Positions 1 through 5,172 of a stretch of DNA of 6,044 nt are shown in pieces. Positions within the stretch are counted from its first letter, which is position 1. Every line of letters starts with the position of its first letter. Source of the stretch: Bacteroidales bacterium. GTDB taxonomy: Bacteria > Bacteroidota > Bacteroidia > Bacteroidales > UBA7960. The notes below the pieces were generated by a model. That model did no database searches, was not told the origin of the DNA, and was given only the letters and a program-made list of their open reading frames with translations. The position numbers and the translations under genes are program-made. Where the stretch lies: the NCBI GenBank assembly GCA_007132865.1, contig SLNU01000364.1, positions 1 through 6,044 on the forward strand. The letters run 5' to 3'.

Positions 1-647
1 AGATGGACGAAACACTGGATTTCAAAGTGATCGAGTTCAATAAGGAAAGCAAGAAGATCGTGGTTTCCCATACCAAGGTGTACCAGGAACCCAGGACTTC
101 TGATCGTTCCGGAGAATCCGGGGAAAGAAAATCCCGGGAGAAAACCTCCAACAAGGTGGTCAAGAAAATGAAAGACAACCTGGAGGTTACCACCCTGGGT
201 GACATCGACGTGTTGGCCAACCTTAAGTCAGAGATCGAGAAGACTGAAAAGACGGAACGTACCGCCAAGCTCGAGAAACTGGAAAAGGAGCATGCCAAAA
301 AGCAGGCCGCTGAAAAAGAAGACAAGCAGCCCGCTGAAAAGGCCGGGAAAAAGGCCGATGAATCTACCGATAAACCTGCCGGCGAATCCAAGGATGAAAC
401 CGCTGCTCAAACCGAGGGTGAAACCACCGATGAGGCCCCTGTAAGCAAGGAAGAAAAGGCTGAAGAGCCCAAGGCCGAGAAAAAAGAACCCAAGGAAAAG
501 GCTGCACCTGCAAAAAAACCCAAAACCGCCGCCGCAAAAAAGGCGGATAAGAAAGAGGAAAAAGAGGAAAAAGAGGAAGAAGGGAAAGAGGAAGAGGGAA
601 AAGCCGGTGAGGATACAGGGGAAGAACCTGCAGCAGACAAAGAGTAA
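1..647 (+). CDS. rpsA: 30S ribosomal protein S1, C-terminal part (partial at 5' end)
   Basis: This is the 3' end of the gene for ribosomal protein S1, which binds mRNA on the 30S subunit during initiation. The reading frame is open from the window edge; the ATG at 3 is probably internal. Residues 1-28 (counted from that ATG) read as the end of the last S1 RNA-binding repeat (LDFKVIEFNKESKKIVVSHT). Residues 63-80 (TLGDIDVLANLKSEIEK) match a segment I recognise from the tail of Bacteroidota S1 proteins. From about residue 80 to the TAA at 645-647 the protein is low-complexity, dominated by Lys, Glu and Ala, with short KEEKEEE-like iterations at about 184-200, and is probably disordered. A long charged tail is familiar in this phylum, but this one is extensive (about 180 residues after the last S1 repeat). 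A hairpin terminator follows 25 bp downstream. The identification is firm; the function of the tail is unknown. Confidence 0.9.
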   Translation, partial: MDETLDFKVIEFNKESKKIVVSHTKVYQEPRTSDRSGESGERKSREKTSNKVVKKMKDNLEVTTLGDIDVLANLKSEIEKTEKTERTAKLEKLEKEHAKKQAAEKEDKQPAEKAGKKADESTDKPAGESKDETAAQTEGETTDEAPVSKEEKAEEPKAEKKEPKEKAAPAKKPKTAAAKKADKKEEKEEKEEEGKEEEGKAGEDTGEEPAADKE

Positions 648-672: not shown

Positions 673-705
673 AACCGCTTCTCAATACAGAGGGGCGGTT
701 TTTTT
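673..705. terminator. Rho-independent terminator, probably bidirectional, between convergent genes
   Basis: The arm AACCGCTTCTC (673-683) pairs with GAGGGGCGGTT (690-700): 11 pairs, two of them G-T wobbles, closing a six-base AATACA loop. On the plus strand it is followed directly by T701-T705, a classic intrinsic terminator for rpsA. Read from the minus strand, the hairpin is followed by CTTTATTG, a weaker interrupted T run, so it may also end the convergent dehydrogenase transcript. The TAA stop of the minus-strand gene (704-706) lies in the T tract, so the two genes share this site. Confidence 0.88.
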
Positions 706-3658
706 ATTCCCCGCCGGGGTCTTTTAACAACATGTACAGGATTTCTGCAGGGTGACTGGCCTTCCTGCCTGTCCCGTCCATGATCTGCTGGCGGCAGCTT
801 GTACCCGGCGCCGCAATCAGGGTGTTGGTACCGGCCCGGCGGATGGCGGGAAACAGTTGCAGTTCCCCAATCTCCATGCTGATGGCGTAATGCTCTTTTT
901 CAAAGCCGAAGGAACCGGCCATCCCACAGCAGCCGCATTCGATCGCTTTCACAGTTGCGTTCGGGGGTATGGACAAGGCCCTGATGGAGAAGTCTACCGA
1001 TGACAGCGCCTTTTGATGGCAATGGCCATGCACCAGGATTTCCACTTGCTTTTCAGAGAACACGCCGGAATCGATGTGTCCCCTGTCAAATTCCCGGCAA
1101 AGGAATTCCTCCAGTGTTAGACAATGCCGGGCCAGCTCAAAGGCAGCCTCCCGCCATTGGGGGGATACCAGCGCAGGGTACTCATCCCTGAAGCCCAGGA
1201 TGGCCGATGGTTCTATCCCGATTATCGAACTGTCTTCCCCTGCCAGGGGTGCAAAACATGCCACATTCTTGTCCGCCACCTTCCTGGCTTGCTCCAGCAA
1301 GCCTTTGGAAATCAGGGCCCTTCCACTTTGCGGATGTCTGGCCAGGCGCACATGGTAACCCAGGCGGTTCAGAAGTAAGATGGTGCGTATTCCGACAAGG
1401 CTCTCATTGTAATTGGTAAACTCATCGCAAAATAACCAAGCAGGTCGCATGGTCTCCTTGCCACCATTGAGAATGCCTGGCTGCCTTTTTGCCCATTTCC
1501 TCAGGCTGGTCCGGGACAGGGCAGGCAGGCTGCGCTGCGGTGCAAAACCTGCGATTTTCCTGATCAGCGGGGCTGTCAGCCATCCCCTGGCCACCAGGTT
1601 GAACAACGGAGGGAAAAAGCTTCCCAAGCGGTTCATCGTGGTGTACAGTCCGATTACCTGCGTGCGAAACGAGGTCCCTTTGAGTTGATGGTGCTGGTAA
1701 AGGTATTCTGCCTTGTATTTGGCCATATCCACATTCGAAGGGCATTCTGACCGGCATCCTTTGCAGGAGAGGCAGAGTTCGAGCACCTCGAGGACCTCCC
1801 GGTGGTCGAACGGACTGAGCCGGGGGGAGTGGGTCAGGTATTCCCGCAGGATATTGGCCCGTCCCCTGGTGGTGGCATCCTCGTTCAGGCTGACATGATA
1901 GGATGGGCACATGACCCCTCCGGCCGTGTGCGGCTTGCGGCAGTCCCCTGAGCCATTGCATTTCTCCACCGCGCGCAAAAAACCACCGGCTTCAGAATAA
2001 TCGAAAAACGGCTTTATCTTCTTCTCTGCAAGTCCGGCCACATACCTCAATCCGCTTTTCATGGAAGGGGTGTCGGTGATCTTTCCCGGATTGAAGAGTT
2101 TCCCCGGATCCCAGGCGGCTTTCACTTCTTTCAGCAATGCTGCGTTTCGGGCTCCCAGCACGAGGGGAATAAACTCCCCGCGGAGCCGGCCATCCCCATG
2201 CTCCCCACTCAGTGAACCCCGGTATCGCTTTACCAGCATGGCGGTTTCCCTCGCAATCTGGTAGAATCGCTCCACATCGGCGGGGTTTTTCAGGTTCAGT
2301 ATGGGGCGCAGGTGAATCTCCCCGGTTCCGATATGGGCATAATACACACAGCTCAGATTCAGCTTGTCAAGAATCTGCTGCAGTGCATCCATAAATCCGG
2401 GAAGGTCGGCCGGCAACACCGCCATATCCTCAATTACGGCGACTGGCTTGGCGTCTCCCGGCACATTCGACAGCAATCCGAGTCCCGCTTTCCTCAGGGC
2501 CCAGACCTTGCCGGTATCCGGACCCGATAGGACCGGAAAGTGGTAGCCAAGGCTGCTTTCACGCATGCTTTTTTCCATTGCCAGGGCCTTTTGAAGGATA
2601 TCCTCCTGGCTATGACCCGCAAATTCTACCACCAGTATCGCCCCGGGATCGCCCTGCAGGAAGAAGCGGTTCTTTTTGTGGGACAAATTGGTTTTGGTGC
2701 AGTCGAGTATGACCCGGTCGATCAGCTCCACTGCGACGGGTTCATGCTCCAGGGCCTTCAGGTTGGCTTCAAATGCTTCCTTAACCGTGTGCAAGTGTAC
2801 GCACACAAGGGCCGATTTAGGGGGAGGGAGGGGTACCAGATTCAGTTTGATCTCCAGAAACAGACCGAGGGTTCCTTCCGAGCCCGCCAGCAGCCGGCAA
2901 AAATTGAAAGGTTCATCCGACTCCGTAAACACGCTGCTATTCATCAGCAGATCCAGCGCATACCCGGTATTGCGCCGCCTGATCCGTGGATCCGGGTATT
3001 CGTTCAGGATTTCCTGCCGGTTTTTTTCGTCGGATAGGCTGGTATAAGTTTGACGGTACAACTGGTTCTCCAGCCGGCTCCCGATGCACTTTCTGCGGAA
3101 GGCGTCGTTGTCAAGCGGACCGAAAAGGGCTTCTGAACCATCCGACAACAAAGCATGGATTTCCAGGGTATGGTCGCGGGTGCTGCCGTAGACCAGTGAG
3201 TGGGCCCCGCAGGCATTGTTGGCCACCATTCCCCCGATCATGCATCGGTTGGAGGTGGAGGTCTCGGGACCAAAAAACAGGCCATGGGGCTTCAGGAAGT
3301 TGTTCAGATCATCAAGGATCACCCCCGGCTCTACCCTGACCCATTTTTCCTCCGTGTTTAGTTCCAGGATGCGGTTCATGTGGCGCGAAAAGTCAAGCAC
3401 CATCCCGCCCCCAACCACCTGACCAGCCAGGGAGGTGCCGGCCGTTCGCGGAACGATGGGCAGCCGGTGTTCACGGCAGAAAGCCAGAACCTTCCGGAGA
3501 TCCTGCCTGGATTTTGGCCTGCACACAGCCTCGGGCACTTCCCTGTACACAGAGGCATCCGTGGCATAGAGCAGCCGCCACTTCATGTCATGGAACAACT
3601 CCCCGTCCAGCTCCCGGGCTAGCAGGTCAAATGGGAATACGGCAGGAGACTTCGGCAT
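704..3658 (-). CDS. YdiJ-type FAD-binding and Fe-S dehydrogenase, probable D-2-hydroxyglutarate dehydrogenase
   Basis: The 984-aa product fuses a GlcD-like flavoprotein to a GlpC/LutA-like iron-sulfur module; E. coli YdiJ has this architecture and similar length. Residues 43-280 form the PCMH-type FAD domain (PRTAGTSLAGQ at 70-80; GGMVANNACG at 142-151). Residues 280-528 are the FAD-oxidase C-terminal domain: HIGTGEIH supplies H442 and H449 and SGEHGDGRLR supplies E486 and H487, matching the metal-site pattern of D-2-hydroxyglutarate dehydrogenases, and FNPGKI closes the domain. Fe-S ligands are C567, C573, C584 and a CxxCxxCxxxCP motif at 629-640. A CCG-type domain follows (HGHCHQK at 877-883, CGCCG at 908-912, TSC at 953-955). 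No membrane helix is evident. Expected reaction: oxidation of a D-2-hydroxy acid, with electrons passed through Fe-S clusters to an unknown acceptor. The adjacent DUF1338 gene favours D-2-hydroxyglutarate over D-lactate or glycolate. The ATG start places the N-terminus as usual for the family; no Shine-Dalgarno sequence is visible. Confidence 0.85.
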   Translation of the reverse strand: MPKSPAVFPFDLLARELDGELFHDMKWRLLYATDASVYREVPEAVCRPKSRQDLRKVLAFCREHRLPIVPRTAGTSLAGQVVGGGMVLDFSRHMNRILELNTEEKWVRVEPGVILDDLNNFLKPHGLFFGPETSTSNRCMIGGMVANNACGAHSLVYGSTRDHTLEIHALLSDGSEALFGPLDNDAFRRKCIGSRLENQLYRQTYTSLSDEKNRQEILNEYPDPRIRRRNTGYALDLLMNSSVFTESDEPFNFCRLLAGSEGTLGLFLEIKLNLVPLPPPKSALVCVHLHTVKEAFEANLKALEHEPVAVELIDRVILDCTKTNLSHKKNRFFLQGDPGAILVVEFAGHSQEDILQKALAMEKSMRESSLGYHFPVLSGPDTGKVWALRKAGLGLLSNVPGDAKPVAVIEDMAVLPADLPGFMDALQQILDKLNLSCVYYAHIGTGEIHLRPILNLKNPADVERFYQIARETAMLVKRYRGSLSGEHGDGRLRGEFIPLVLGARNAALLKEVKAAWDPGKLFNPGKITDTPSMKSGLRYVAGLAEKKIKPFFDYSEAGGFLRAVEKCNGSGDCRKPHTAGGVMCPSYHVSLNEDATTRGRANILREYLTHSPRLSPFDHREVLEVLELCLSCKGCRSECPSNVDMAKYKAEYLYQHHQLKGTSFRTQVIGLYTTMNRLGSFFPPLFNLVARGWLTAPLIRKIAGFAPQRSLPALSRTSLRKWAKRQPGILNGGKETMRPAWLFCDEFTNYNESLVGIRTILLLNRLGYHVRLARHPQSGRALISKGLLEQARKVADKNVACFAPLAGEDSSIIGIEPSAILGFRDEYPALVSPQWREAAFELARHCLTLEEFLCREFDRGHIDSGVFSEKQVEILVHGHCHQKALSSVDFSIRALSIPPNATVKAIECGCCGMAGSFGFEKEHYAISMEIGELQLFPAIRRAGTNTLIAAPGTSCRQQIMDGTGRKASHPAEILYMLLKDPGGE

Positions 3659-3718
3659 TTGCAGCGCAGGTATTACATTTAAAGACTTAGCCGGGTGGAC
3701 GGCAGGAGGGGCCGGGAG

Positions 3719-3818
3719 ACTACTTGTCCCCGTCCGGGAAACTTACTTGTCCCCGTCCGGGCAACTACTTGTCATCGTCCGGGCAACTACTTGTCCCCGT
3801 CCGGGGAACTACATGCCC
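3719..3818. repeat. 22-bp tandem direct repeat array, four units plus a decayed fifth
   Basis: Four head-to-tail copies of ACTACTTGTCCCCGTCCGGG plus two variable bases occupy 3719-3740, 3741-3763, 3764-3785 and 3786-3807. Unit 2 carries one inserted T (ACTTACTT), unit 3 has TCATCG for TCCCCG, and the last two bases vary (AA, CA, CA, GA). A fifth copy decays after ACTACATGCCC (3808-3818). There are no unique spacers. Each core can fold as a short hairpin (CCC-GGAC-GGG on the minus strand); the best is TCCCC-GTCC-GGGGA at 3794-3807. The array fills much of the gap between the DUF1338 and YdiJ-type genes and would lie in their transcript if they are co-transcribed. It resembles small palindrome-containing REP-like repeats, but no transposase is in the window, so the class is an inference. 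Confidence 0.9.
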
Positions 3819-4639
3819 GGCCCGTCTTCGTCCTTTTGATAAAAATTGGTGCTTTCAAAGATCTTGTCGGCATTGGCGGCAATGAACCCGCTGTAAAGCT
3901 TCCCGCTCTTGTCGGGATAGCGCCTGGTAAACTCATAGAAACAGGCCGGGATTTCATGGATGCCGTCTGAAAACTCAAACGGCATGATCTCCGCCTTGGT
4001 GGCCGATTGCTCCAACAGCTCTTCGGCCGAGCCGTATATCTCACTGCCTGAAGCCGTATTCATCAGGTAGCCATGCTTTTTCACAAAATCGTTCACCTGC
4101 GTAAGGTCCTGAAAGCCCTTCAACCCATTCACCTTGATCGCAAAATGATTTGCCCGGAAACCATAGGTGAGGGTCCATGCTGCATATTCGCTTTCTTTCC
4201 GCAGTTCCTCATATACGTCATAAGGCAGCTTTCCCCACAGGCTTCCCCTGAATACCAGGTCCGGGTCCATGTAAGCTTCGCCGGGAAGGCTGTCCAGCCT
4301 TTCCTTTATCGTGCGCTTCAGGGACTCACTGAATCCCTCCATTAGCAGCTGGCTGATGAACACCTTTGGCGCATCCGGATCGCTGCGGTGTTCATAATGC
4401 CTGCCTAGTAGTTGCTTGGCCTTGAAGTCATAGGTTCCCCTGGCCTCATAACCATTGTCGGTGAAGATCCTGGCCACCACATCAATGTCCACACGCGGGT
4501 CGTTAAAGGTGCGCAGCGCGATGTGGTCATGGACAACCTGCTCCCCCTCCCGGGTGAACAAGTCGTGTATCCTTTTTGCAGAAGGATTCTGGGTGCTGTA
4601 GGCCTCCCAGAAACGGTCAAATATTGAATGGATTTTCAT
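3809..4639 (-). CDS. DUF1338 / HglS-family 2-oxoadipate dioxygenase/decarboxylase (putative)
   Basis: The 276-aa product belongs to the DUF1338 family, Fe(II) enzymes of the VOC fold. The characterised member, Pseudomonas putida HglS, converts 2-oxoadipate plus O2 to D-2-hydroxyglutarate and CO2 in lysine catabolism. Numbering from the ATG at 4639, H39 and R43 (DHIALRTF) have the His-x3-Arg spacing of the first iron ligand and substrate arginine of HglS; H165 (RANHFAIKV) and E236 (CFYEFTRRY) fit the other two ligands. The protein is much shorter than the approximately 460-aa HglS and lacks its extra C-terminal part. An upstream TTG (4672) would add 11 residues, but it overlaps a likely -7 box, and MKIHSIFDRFW is a natural start. 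The leader is A-rich with no Shine-Dalgarno sequence. The TAG stop (3809-3811) lies in the decayed last copy of the 22-bp repeat. The YdiJ-type gene follows 150 bp downstream. Family assignment is strong; substrate is inferred. Confidence 0.83.
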   Translation of the reverse strand: MKIHSIFDRFWEAYSTQNPSAKRIHDLFTREGEQVVHDHIALRTFNDPRVDIDVVARIFTDNGYEARGTYDFKAKQLLGRHYEHRSDPDAPKVFISQLLMEGFSESLKRTIKERLDSLPGEAYMDPDLVFRGSLWGKLPYDVYEELRKESEYAAWTLTYGFRANHFAIKVNGLKGFQDLTQVNDFVKKHGYLMNTASGSEIYGSAEELLEQSATKAEIMPFEFSDGIHEIPACFYEFTRRYPDKSGKLYSGFIAANADKIFESTNFYQKDEDGPGM

Positions 4640-4716: not shown

Positions 4717-5172
4717 TTAGTTTTCGTTGCGGGGCTCCTCAGGCGAATAATTATTCAGGCTTCTCAGCATGGCCAGGGTCAACAAGGGGAAAACCAATGT
4801 GAACACCACTTTGATCCAGGTGGCCGTATAAAGCCCTGATAGGATAAAAAACCAGATCAGCGAAAGAAAAACAATGTCCAGTGTGATTACCAGGCTATTG
4901 CCCGGCTCCTTCTTCATCCAGCGGGGATAGGGCAGCGCTTCGTATTTCAGGGCTTTGGCCTTCAGCAGGCGGTAGGTGATGACCACCCAGGTCACTGGCA
5001 TGACAAAGCCGATGACAAAGCCCGCCAGTCTGAGGTCAAAATACCCAAAGGAATACAGAAACCCAATGATTGTTTGCCCGAAGAAGGCCACCCTGAAATT
5101 GGCCGGATTGCCTACGGAGGCATGGACCAGGGAGGACAGCACAGGGTGGATGGAAATTTTGTTTTCTGACAT
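4717..5172 (-). CDS. Small four-helix integral membrane protein, unknown function
   Basis: I do not recognise the family of this 151-aa protein. Hydrophobic stretches at about residues 28-46, 48-69, 94-117 and 119-137 suggest two helical hairpins in the inner membrane. They are separated by a positively charged loop at about 70-92 (RLLKAKALKYEALPYPRWMKK) that should face the cytoplasm. The N-terminal 27 residues are polar with no signal peptide, and the C-terminus is acidic (SPEEPRNEN). No catalytic or metal-binding pattern is visible. The ATG at 5172 is preceded by an AT-rich leader without a Shine-Dalgarno sequence. The gene lies 77 bp upstream of the DUF1338 gene in the same direction, so read-through is possible, but a promoter-like sequence in the gap argues for separate expression. 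It is divergent from the outer-membrane protein gene, 52 bp away. It is probably a real gene given its length, hydrophobic pattern and fit between neighbours. Confidence 0.75.
   Translation of the reverse strand: MSENKISIHPVLSSLVHASVGNPANFRVAFFGQTIIGFLYSFGYFDLRLAGFVIGFVMPVTWVVITYRLLKAKALKYEALPYPRWMKKEPGNSLVITLDIVFLSLIWFFILSGLYTATWIKVVFTLVFPLLTLAMLRSLNNYSPEEPRNEN

What the first reader, a model, noticed from the sequence alone, without database searches (positions are those of the whole stretch)
704..4639. Adjacent HglS-type and YdiJ-type genes: a likely two-step 2-oxoadipate to 2-oxoglutarate module
Sequence: a DUF1338 protein with H39/R43/H165/E236 and a FAD/Fe-S dehydrogenase with H442/H449/E486 are neighbours on the same strand. 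Known: in Pseudomonas putida a DUF1338 enzyme (HglS) makes D-2-hydroxyglutarate from 2-oxoadipate, and a YdiJ-family dehydrogenase oxidises D-2-hydroxyglutarate to 2-oxoglutarate in lysine catabolism. Inference: this bacterium carries the two steps as a compact unit, in which the first enzyme's product is the second's substrate. This would suggest a lysine/2-aminoadipate route in Bacteroidota and gives a specific substrate to a dehydrogenase usually annotated only as an FAD-linked oxidase. Because the first step needs O2, it also hints at at least microaerobic growth.
Basis: partly seen in the sequence, partly recalled or inferred. Interest (0 to 1): 0.72.

Follow-up and report, generated by a model that had tools for sequence, protein, structure and literature searches.

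The report
Paired lysine-breakdown enzymes in Bacteroidales
Two neighbouring bacterial genes probably encode the last two steps of lysine breakdown (2-oxoadipate to D-2-hydroxyglutarate to 2-oxoglutarate), and related bacteria carry most of the earlier steps, which points to the oxygen-requiring route known from plants.

Summary
The first resembles rice FLO7 (solved with 2-oxoadipate; TM 0.85) more than P. putida HglS. The pairing recurs: 23 of 39 fetched DUF1338 loci have the YdiJ-like gene immediately downstream. In 392 sampled Bacteroidota genomes 27 have DUF1338; 4 have YdiJ within 1 kb (0.012 expected), 3 of 26 without the sample's own centre, which was chosen from linked genomes. The linkage changes at least 3 times on the YdiJ tree and involves three DUF1338 size classes. 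Some clusters hold piperideine-6-carboxylate (P6C) dehydrogenase, a class-III aminotransferase or a SerB-SerA fusion between the pair. Of 31 related genomes 29 have saccharopine dehydrogenase (lysine-ketoglutarate reductase beside it in 7 of 7 loci examined), 12 P6C dehydrogenase, 30 a terminal oxidase family. This supports a plant-like, O2-dependent lysine route ending in this pair. Unproven: activities, the aminotransferase, the window's own genome. Against: 8 of 31 lack both linkage and P6C dehydrogenase; 11 of 23 linked genomes lack full P6C dehydrogenase; the YdiJ-like protein scores below the NCBIfam YdiJ cut-off.

The parts
3809..4639 (-). Short (FLO7/3lho-class) DUF1338 protein, 276 aa; predicted 2-oxoadipate dioxygenase/decarboxylase (D-2-hydroxyglutarate synthase); H39, H165, E236 metal ligands, R43 distal-carboxylate arginine
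   Evidence: PF07063 3.1e-25; phmmer 3lho 4e-72, FLO7 6w1k 8e-31; AlphaFold model pLDDT 87.6, Foldseek TMq 0.85 to 6w1k; residues conserved in at least 61 of 62
704..3658 (-). YdiJ-like FAD + 4Fe-4S dehydrogenase, 984 aa; predicted D-2-hydroxyglutarate dehydrogenase (R389, K404, Y440, H442, H449, R451, E486, H487)
   Evidence: PF01565, PF02913, Fer4; NF049975 587.8 bits, below its cut-off 1350; 29.5% identity to E. coli YdiJ; active-site comparison
3659..3808 (-). 150-bp gap between the two genes, mostly a 22-bp tandem repeat; no minus-strand terminator-like site found, so co-transcription is possible
   Evidence: gap in 23 relatives 18-232 bp, median 45
4717..5172 (-). Small hydrophobic protein, 151 aa, upstream on the same strand; conserved upstream of DUF1338 in relatives; role unknown, membership of the unit uncertain
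   Evidence: no Pfam or NCBIfam match; homologue upstream of DUF1338 on the same strand in 15 of 39 loci

Best explanation
The two genes form the terminal module of an L-lysine catabolic route. The DUF1338 enzyme (Fe(II), O2) decarboxylates and hydroxylates 2-oxoadipate to D-2-hydroxyglutarate. The YdiJ-like flavo-iron-sulfur dehydrogenase oxidises that to 2-oxoglutarate, passing electrons through its GlpC-like Fe-S half, probably to quinone. Upstream, relatives carry lysine-ketoglutarate reductase and saccharopine dehydrogenase and, in part of them, piperideine-6-carboxylate (aminoadipate semialdehyde) dehydrogenase; an aminotransferase would give 2-oxoadipate. Shown: genes, residues, fold match, recurrent linkage on separate branches, genome content of relatives. 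Inferred: activities, substrate of the dehydrogenase, electron acceptor, the aminotransferase, co-transcription.
For: YdiJ-like gene directly downstream in 23 of 39 fetched loci, gap 18-232 bp. In a sample of 392 Bacteroidota, 4 of 27 DUF1338 genomes have YdiJ within 1 kb against 0.012 expected, and 9 of 27 within 15 kb (8 on the same strand) against 0.18; without the centre genome G014, 3 and 8 of 26. On a tree of 82 Bacteroidota YdiJ-like proteins plus E. coli YdiJ the linked label needs 4 changes, 3 forced by starred branches, with short, medium and long DUF1338 classes. L076, L078, L079: DUF1338 - P6C dehydrogenase (825-827 bits, cut-off 730) - other genes - class-III aminotransferase - YdiJ. 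L077: DUF1338 - SerB-SerA fusion - YdiJ. L087: short DUF1338 with LKR, SDH and an SNF-type symporter within 10 kb, same strand. Genome content: SDH-type protein of about 450 aa (E below 1e-70) in 29 of 31; LKR beside it in 7 of 7 loci examined, matching human AASS domains; P6C dehydrogenase over the cut-off in 12 of 31. FLO7 (about 15% identical to HglS) and E. coli YdcJ make 2-hydroxyglutarate from 2-oxoadipate (PMC7286885). E. coli and P. ananatis YdiJ are strict D-2-hydroxyglutarate dehydrogenases (PMC9504171), and window K404 and R451 are shared with E. coli YdiJ but not GlcD.
Against: 8 of 31 related Bacteroidota loci with a 62-66%-identical DUF1338 have no YdiJ in the flank held, and none of those 8 genomes has P6C dehydrogenase over the cut-off. 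P6C dehydrogenase is also below the cut-off in 11 of the 23 linked genomes (3 of these, G008, G012 and G018, show fragments). G402 (L087), whose DUF1338 lies near LKR and SDH, and 5 others of the 27 DUF1338 genomes lack it too. Only 1 of 13 medium-class DUF1338 genes directly adjoins YdiJ. No lysine 6-aminotransferase over the cut-off in any of 31 genomes. The YdiJ-like protein is far below the NF049975 cut-off. K404 and R451 are common in unlinked YdiJ-like proteins too, so they do not single out the linked ones. The linked loci are kin of one another, and label changes on a tree cannot tell gains from losses. Cytochrome bd and PF16653 also ring in the control Bacteroides ihuae, so neither is diagnostic alone.
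Confidence: 0.76

Rival explanations
1. The YdiJ-like enzyme is a general D-2-hydroxyglutarate scavenger, mainly for D-2-hydroxyglutarate made by SerA in serine synthesis; DUF1338 is a minor second source and lysine catabolism is not the main role.
For: SerA makes D-2-hydroxyglutarate and YdiJ recycles it in E. coli and P. ananatis (PMC9504171). In L077 a SerB-SerA fusion lies between DUF1338 and YdiJ. Matches to the YdiJ-like protein at E <= 1e-30 (partial and more distant ones included) occur in 234 of 392 Bacteroidota but DUF1338 in 27.
Against: In 21 of 23 linked relatives the only YdiJ-like match at E <= 1e-100 is the one beside DUF1338 (G002 shows none because its copy is cut, G018 shows one on another contig), and P6C dehydrogenase, LKR or SDH lie in other DUF1338 clusters, which a serine-only role does not explain.
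Confidence: 0.12
2. The neighbourhood is inherited gene order without functional meaning.
For: In many of the linked loci the genes further upstream (DNA ligase, ABC ATPase, universal stress protein, Omp85, small membrane protein) are also kept in order. The label changes on the YdiJ tree could in part be losses.
Against: Downstream flanks vary while the pair persists at 54-95% YdiJ identity; the linkage needs at least 3 changes on the YdiJ tree and involves different DUF1338 classes, which one inherited pair does not explain without replacement.
Confidence: 0.06
3. The DUF1338 enzyme acts on another 2-oxo acid and the dehydrogenase on another D-2-hydroxy acid, so the pair shortens a different keto acid by one carbon in the same way.
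For: I found no reported assay of a DUF1338 of this short bacterial class (search listings; one search listed 40 of 49 papers); the YdiJ-like protein is only 29.5% identical to E. coli YdiJ.
Against: The arginine that binds the distal carboxylate is kept, HglS was active on 2-oxoadipate alone of seven 2-oxo acids tested (PMC7286885), and aminoadipate-pathway genes cluster with DUF1338.
Confidence: 0.06

Closest known systems
FLO7 / AT1G07040 (plant DUF1338 hydroxyglutarate synthase)
   Same: Short DUF1338 protein, same HHE triad and arginine, fold TMq 0.85 to FLO7; acts after 2-oxoadipate in plant lysine catabolism (PMC7286885)
   Different: 30-31% identity to FLO7; bacterial, gene next to a YdiJ-like dehydrogenase; FLO7 is targeted to the amyloplast
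HglS of Pseudomonas putida
   Same: PF07063, same predicted reaction and metal site
   Different: HglS is a longer form, 14-15% identity by Foldseek; part of a D-lysine route (PMC7286885); gene neighbourhood in P. putida not examined here
YdiJ (D2HGDH) of E. coli and Pantoea ananatis
   Same: GlcD-like FAD half plus GlpC-like Fe-S half; R389, K404, H442, H449, R451, E486, H487 shared with E. coli YdiJ
   Different: 29.5% identity to E. coli YdiJ; below the NF049975 cut-off; in E. coli ydiJ lies beside menI and ydiK and the DUF1338 gene ydcJ elsewhere
3LHO, Shewanella frigidimarina DUF1338 protein
   Same: Closest solved structure, 43% identity, TM 0.85/0.92
   Different: Deposited as a putative hydrolase; PMC7286885 (2020) says none of the earlier DUF1338 structures had been characterised biochemically
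Human AASS / LKR-SDH saccharopine pathway
   Same: Relatives encode LKR and SDH proteins matching the two AASS domains at 1e-77 and 4e-85 (for G014)
   Different: Two adjacent genes instead of one bifunctional protein

Membership tests
Hydroxyglutarate synthase (PF07063, 2-oxoadipate dioxygenase/decarboxylase) | Pfam PF07063 match over the curated cut-off | tested here: met
   89.7 bits against 25
Hydroxyglutarate synthase (PF07063, 2-oxoadipate dioxygenase/decarboxylase) | His-His-Glu metal triad and substrate arginine | tested here: met
   H39, R43, H165, E236 align with FLO7 and 3lho, conserved in at least 61 of 62 rows
Hydroxyglutarate synthase (PF07063, 2-oxoadipate dioxygenase/decarboxylase) | Vicinal-oxygen-chelate fold matching 2-oxoadipate-bound structures | tested here: met
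   Model pLDDT 87.6; 6w1k TMq 0.85, 6w1h TMq 0.57
Hydroxyglutarate synthase (PF07063, 2-oxoadipate dioxygenase/decarboxylase) | Fe(II)- and O2-dependent conversion of 2-oxoadipate to D-2-hydroxyglutarate | not testable with these tools
   needs purified protein
YdiJ D-2-hydroxyglutarate dehydrogenase (NF049975 equivalog) | Score over the equivalog cut-off | tested here: not met
   587.8 bits against 1350
YdiJ D-2-hydroxyglutarate dehydrogenase (NF049975 equivalog) | GlcD-type FAD half fused to GlpC-type Fe-S half | tested here: met
   PF01565, PF02913, Fer4; a GlpC profile matches 613-979
YdiJ D-2-hydroxyglutarate dehydrogenase (NF049975 equivalog) | Active-site residues of E. coli YdiJ | tested here: met
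   R389, K404, H442, H449, R451, E486, H487 identical; 393 and 440 differ (L/V, Y/F)
YdiJ D-2-hydroxyglutarate dehydrogenase (NF049975 equivalog) | Strict activity on D-2-hydroxyglutarate | not testable with these tools
   needs purified protein
Glycolate oxidase GlcD | Score over TIGR00387 cut-off | tested here: not met
   210.5 bits against 567.9
Saccharopine-type L-lysine catabolism (genome level) | LKR and SDH genes in the genome | tested here: inconclusive
   SDH-type in 29 of 31 related genomes, LKR adjacent in 7 of 7 loci examined; no genome held for the window
Saccharopine-type L-lysine catabolism (genome level) | Aminoadipate-semialdehyde / P6C dehydrogenase | tested here: inconclusive
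   over the cut-off in 12 of 31, fragments in 3 more; not in G001, the closest MAG
Saccharopine-type L-lysine catabolism (genome level) | 2-aminoadipate aminotransferase | not tested
   too generic a family; a class-III aminotransferase recurs near DUF1338 in 5 loci

The most novel reading that the evidence does not exclude
Some Bacteroidales and other Bacteroidota run the whole plant-type L-lysine route (saccharopine, aminoadipate, 2-oxoadipate, D-2-hydroxyglutarate, 2-oxoglutarate), with its oxygen-dependent last part encoded by a gene pair assembled several times independently from different DUF1338 classes; this would define a distant YdiJ-like subfamily as respiratory D-2-hydroxyglutarate dehydrogenases in Bacteroidota and mark lysine use as an oxygen-dependent trait in these lineages.
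Probability: 0.5. Interest if true: 0.6.

Novelty: new variant of a known kind. Interest (0 to 1): 0.52.

Why it matters
It gives a testable substrate to a dehydrogenase usually annotated only as an FAD-linked oxidase and common in Bacteroidota (matches at E <= 1e-30, partial and distant ones included, in 234 of 392 genomes). It also gives a physiological partner to the short bacterial DUF1338 proteins, whose closest solved structure is still called a putative hydrolase. It extends the saccharopine-to-hydroxyglutarate lysine route, worked out in plants and partly in P. putida, to Bacteroidota, and predicts that these bacteria need oxygen to finish lysine breakdown. The pairing of different DUF1338 classes with YdiJ-like genes on separate branches is comparative evidence for the reaction sequence.

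Tried and rejected
No genome is held for the window, so pathway content was read from relatives. A viral-contig scan found no relative. Lysine 6-aminotransferase TIGR03251 was tested as the entry enzyme: 0 of 31 genomes over the cut-off. PF16653 alone was not taken as proof of saccharopine dehydrogenase, because it also rings in Bacteroides ihuae and one of the other copies (in G014) is carboxynorspermidine synthase-like, though below that model's cut-off; only the copy of about 450 aa was counted. NF050084 matches below the cut-off were not counted as P6C dehydrogenase. Of the 23 PF00115 genomes, G025 has only a match of about 760 aa and 196 bits, which may be a nitric oxide reductase (recalled); 22 have matches over 430 bits.

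Reading the linkage as one inherited synteny block was rejected on the tree and the DUF1338 classes. On that tree E. coli YdiJ is a very long branch (8.45), the search was 'quick', the YdiJ of L080 (9 kb from DUF1338, other strand) was labelled unlinked, and changes may be gains or losses. The Fisher test of DUF1338 against P6C dehydrogenase (21 of 27 against 188 of 365, p = 0.009) ignores kinship and counts one genome whose match is below the cut-off. Genome sizes and copy numbers for the chance estimate were entered by hand; one search did not list all its matches, so copy numbers may be low. The phylum sample includes its centre G014, taken from the linked set. A completeness of 90 was asked for, but the answers give no completeness values. 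For the tree I fetched 53 YdiJ stretches not beside DUF1338 out of those listed, chosen by hand over a range of scores. Of the clusters of neighbouring genes only chosen representatives were scanned for families.

Searches for print on DUF1338 in Bacteroidota or its pairing with YdiJ (one search listed 12 of 29 papers, 40 of 49) showed none in the open-licence library held; the mBio 2019 paper on P. putida lysine metabolism (recalled) is not held, so I cannot say whether it shows such neighbourhoods. Papers seen: PMC7286885, first three of seven parts; PMC9504171, first of six parts and passages; PMC7801405, passages. The rest were search listings with starts of abstracts.

Full report
What is in the window. 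The window is most likely a metagenome contig: no genome is held for it, and a 99%-identical DUF1338 protein in the protein database comes from a contig of 6046 bases. Its closest genome relative is a Bacteroidales MAG contig (L001, isolate CSSed165cm_597; DUF1338 93%, YdiJ-like 95%, same gene order). On the minus strand lie, in order of reading, a 151-aa membrane-type protein (4717-5172), the DUF1338 protein (3809-4639) and the YdiJ-like dehydrogenase (704-3658). The gap of 150 bp between the last two holds a 22-bp tandem repeat (3712-3812, 4.5 copies) and no minus-strand terminator-like site.

The DUF1338 protein. It matches PF07063. The nearest solved structures by sequence are 3lho (4e-72) and rice FLO7 6w1k (8e-31). 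A model (pLDDT 87.6) matches 3lho with TM 0.85/0.92 and FLO7, which was crystallised with 2-oxoadipate, with TMq 0.85; P. putida HglS is further away (TMq 0.55-0.57, 14-15% identity). According to PMC7286885, FLO7 and HglS make the same product despite about 15% identity, HglS was active only on 2-oxoadipate among seven 2-oxo acids, and the arginine binds the distal carboxylate. The prediction for the window protein follows from that; it is not an assay.

The dehydrogenase. It has the GlcD-like FAD half and a GlpC-like Fe-S half, the architecture of YdiJ, which in E. coli and P. ananatis is a strict D-2-hydroxyglutarate dehydrogenase (PMC9504171). It is only 29.5% identical to E. coli YdiJ and below the NCBIfam cut-off (587.8 against 1350), so I call it YdiJ-like. 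Human D2HGDH binds the C5 carboxylate with Lys401 and, among others, Asn443 (PMC7801405 passages). By spacing, window K404 and R451 take these places; E. coli YdiJ has K and R there too, while E. coli GlcD has a gap and L. The same letters occur in most unlinked Bacteroidota relatives (over all 82 rows, linked ones included: K in 71, R in 68), so they support D-2-hydroxyglutarate for the subfamily as a whole, not for the linked ones in particular. The mapping from the human enzyme rests on spacing, not on a structural alignment.

Is the pairing more than chance? A scan with an alignment of close relatives gave 39 loci. In 23 of 39 the YdiJ-like gene follows on the same strand, 18 to 232 bp after the stop. 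It was not found in the flank held for 8 further Bacteroidota, 3 Nannocystis and 4 Nitrospirales loci; one more locus (L039) is a fragment at a contig end. This set is biased towards kin. In a draw of 392 Bacteroidota genomes 27 have DUF1338: 3 long, 13 medium and 11 short proteins by size. Matches to the YdiJ-like protein at E <= 1e-30, partial and distant ones included, occur in 234 of 392. Of the 27, 4 have YdiJ within 1 kb (expected 0.012) and 9 within 15 kb (expected 0.18; one of the 9, G424, is on the opposite strand). One of the 4, G014, is the centre of the sample and had been taken from the linked set; without it the counts are 3 and 8 of 26. G121 and G344 are near copies, so the events are fewer still. 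On a tree of 82 Bacteroidota YdiJ-like proteins (28 linked, 54 not) plus E. coli YdiJ the linked label needs 4 changes, 3 of them forced by starred branches: the window clade with short DUF1338, the L076-L079 clade, L081 with a medium DUF1338 (gap 4 bp) and L082/L083 with a long one and an AsnC/Lrp regulator between. Changes on a tree may be gains or losses; that the DUF1338 partners are of different classes speaks for separate pairings.

What else sits with it. In L076, L078 and L079 a divergent AsnC/Lrp gene is followed by DUF1338, P6C dehydrogenase (825-827 bits against 730), other genes including glycosidases, a class-III aminotransferase and YdiJ. In L077 a HAD-PGDH (SerB-SerA) fusion stands between DUF1338 and YdiJ; SerA is another known source of D-2-hydroxyglutarate (PMC9504171). 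In L073 and L075 a medium DUF1338 adjoins P6C dehydrogenase. In L087 a short DUF1338 lies within 10 kb of LKR and SDH genes and an SNF-type symporter, all on one strand, though that genome (G402) has no P6C dehydrogenase match.

Genome content of relatives. The 31 genomes G001-G031 are those of L001-L030 and L034, by title mostly Bacteroidales, a few only Bacteroidetes, Bacteroidia or Sphingobacteriia. The SDH-type protein of about 450 aa is in 29 of 31. In the 7 loci looked at, all from linked genomes, LKR is adjacent; for G014 the two proteins match the two halves of human AASS. P6C dehydrogenase is over the cut-off in 12 of 31, all among the 23 YdiJ-linked genomes and none of the 8 unlinked; 3 more linked ones have fragments. 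In four loci it sits beside genes clustering with aconitase, citrate synthase and NADP isocitrate dehydrogenase (named from L099). Lysine 6-aminotransferase is over the cut-off in 0 of 31. PF00115 (heme-copper oxidase family) is in 23 of 31, 22 of them with over 430 bits, and cytochrome bd in 23 of 31; 30 of 31 have one or the other, G001 being the exception. Cytochrome bd also rings in the control Bacteroides ihuae, so the heme-copper enzyme (19 of the 23 linked genomes) is the better sign of oxygen use. In 21 of 23 linked genomes the only YdiJ-like match at E <= 1e-100 is the one beside DUF1338; G002 shows none (its copy is cut by a contig end) and G018 one on another contig. The 8 unlinked genomes have two or three matches elsewhere.

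Wider correlation. P6C dehydrogenase is in 208 of 392 Bacteroidota over the cut-off, so most genomes that have it lack DUF1338; among DUF1338 genomes 21 of 27 have it against 188 of 365 of the others (p = 0.009, kinship ignored). What the others do with 2-oxoadipate was not examined.

Reading. Weak points are the absence of P6C dehydrogenase from many relatives including the closest MAG (MAGs are incomplete, but G014 and G021 have contigs over 100 kb), the unidentified aminotransferase, and the lack of any assay. The serine-linked role of YdiJ is a compatible second function.

Novelty. Each enzyme class and each reaction is known. The compact pair in Bacteroidota and its link with LKR-SDH and P6C dehydrogenase did not appear in the papers searched (listings only). 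I rate it a new variant of a known kind.

Noticed in passing
window 3712-3812: A 22-bp tandem repeat (4.5 copies) fills much of the gap between the two genes and reaches the last codons of DUF1338; the unit holds CCCCGTCCGGG, which could pair with itself. The 93%-identical relative L001 has a shorter gap of 83 bp.
   Followed up: partly
window 4717-5172 (-): A 151-aa hydrophobic protein without Pfam or NCBIfam match is kept upstream of DUF1338 on the same strand in 15 of 39 loci; possible third member of the unit.
   Followed up: no
L077 8934-10847: A HAD-phosphatase fused to phosphoglycerate dehydrogenase (SerB-SerA fusion) sits between DUF1338 and YdiJ, joining two sources of D-2-hydroxyglutarate with its dehydrogenase in one cluster.
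   Followed up: partly
L076 13557-15854, L078 14000-16297, L079; L071 and L094: A large protein with a phosphotransferase (PF01636) domain and a class-III aminotransferase domain lies near DUF1338 of two size classes; candidate for the missing aminotransferase.
   Followed up: no
L097, L098, L099, L103: P6C dehydrogenase has genes of the aconitase A, citrate synthase and NADP isocitrate dehydrogenase clusters next to it on the same strand (families named from L099), which may couple lysine breakdown to the oxidative arm of the TCA cycle.
   Followed up: partly
L022-L028, L034: A Bacteroidota group has a 62-66% identical DUF1338 without YdiJ nearby and without P6C dehydrogenase over the cut-off, but with two or three unlinked YdiJ-like matches per genome; in three of the eight loci an aldo/keto reductase lies upstream. 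Its role may differ.
   Followed up: no
window 3-647 (+): The end of a lysine/glutamate-rich protein whose first residues look to me like the C-terminal end of ribosomal protein S1 (recalled; no family match).
   Followed up: no
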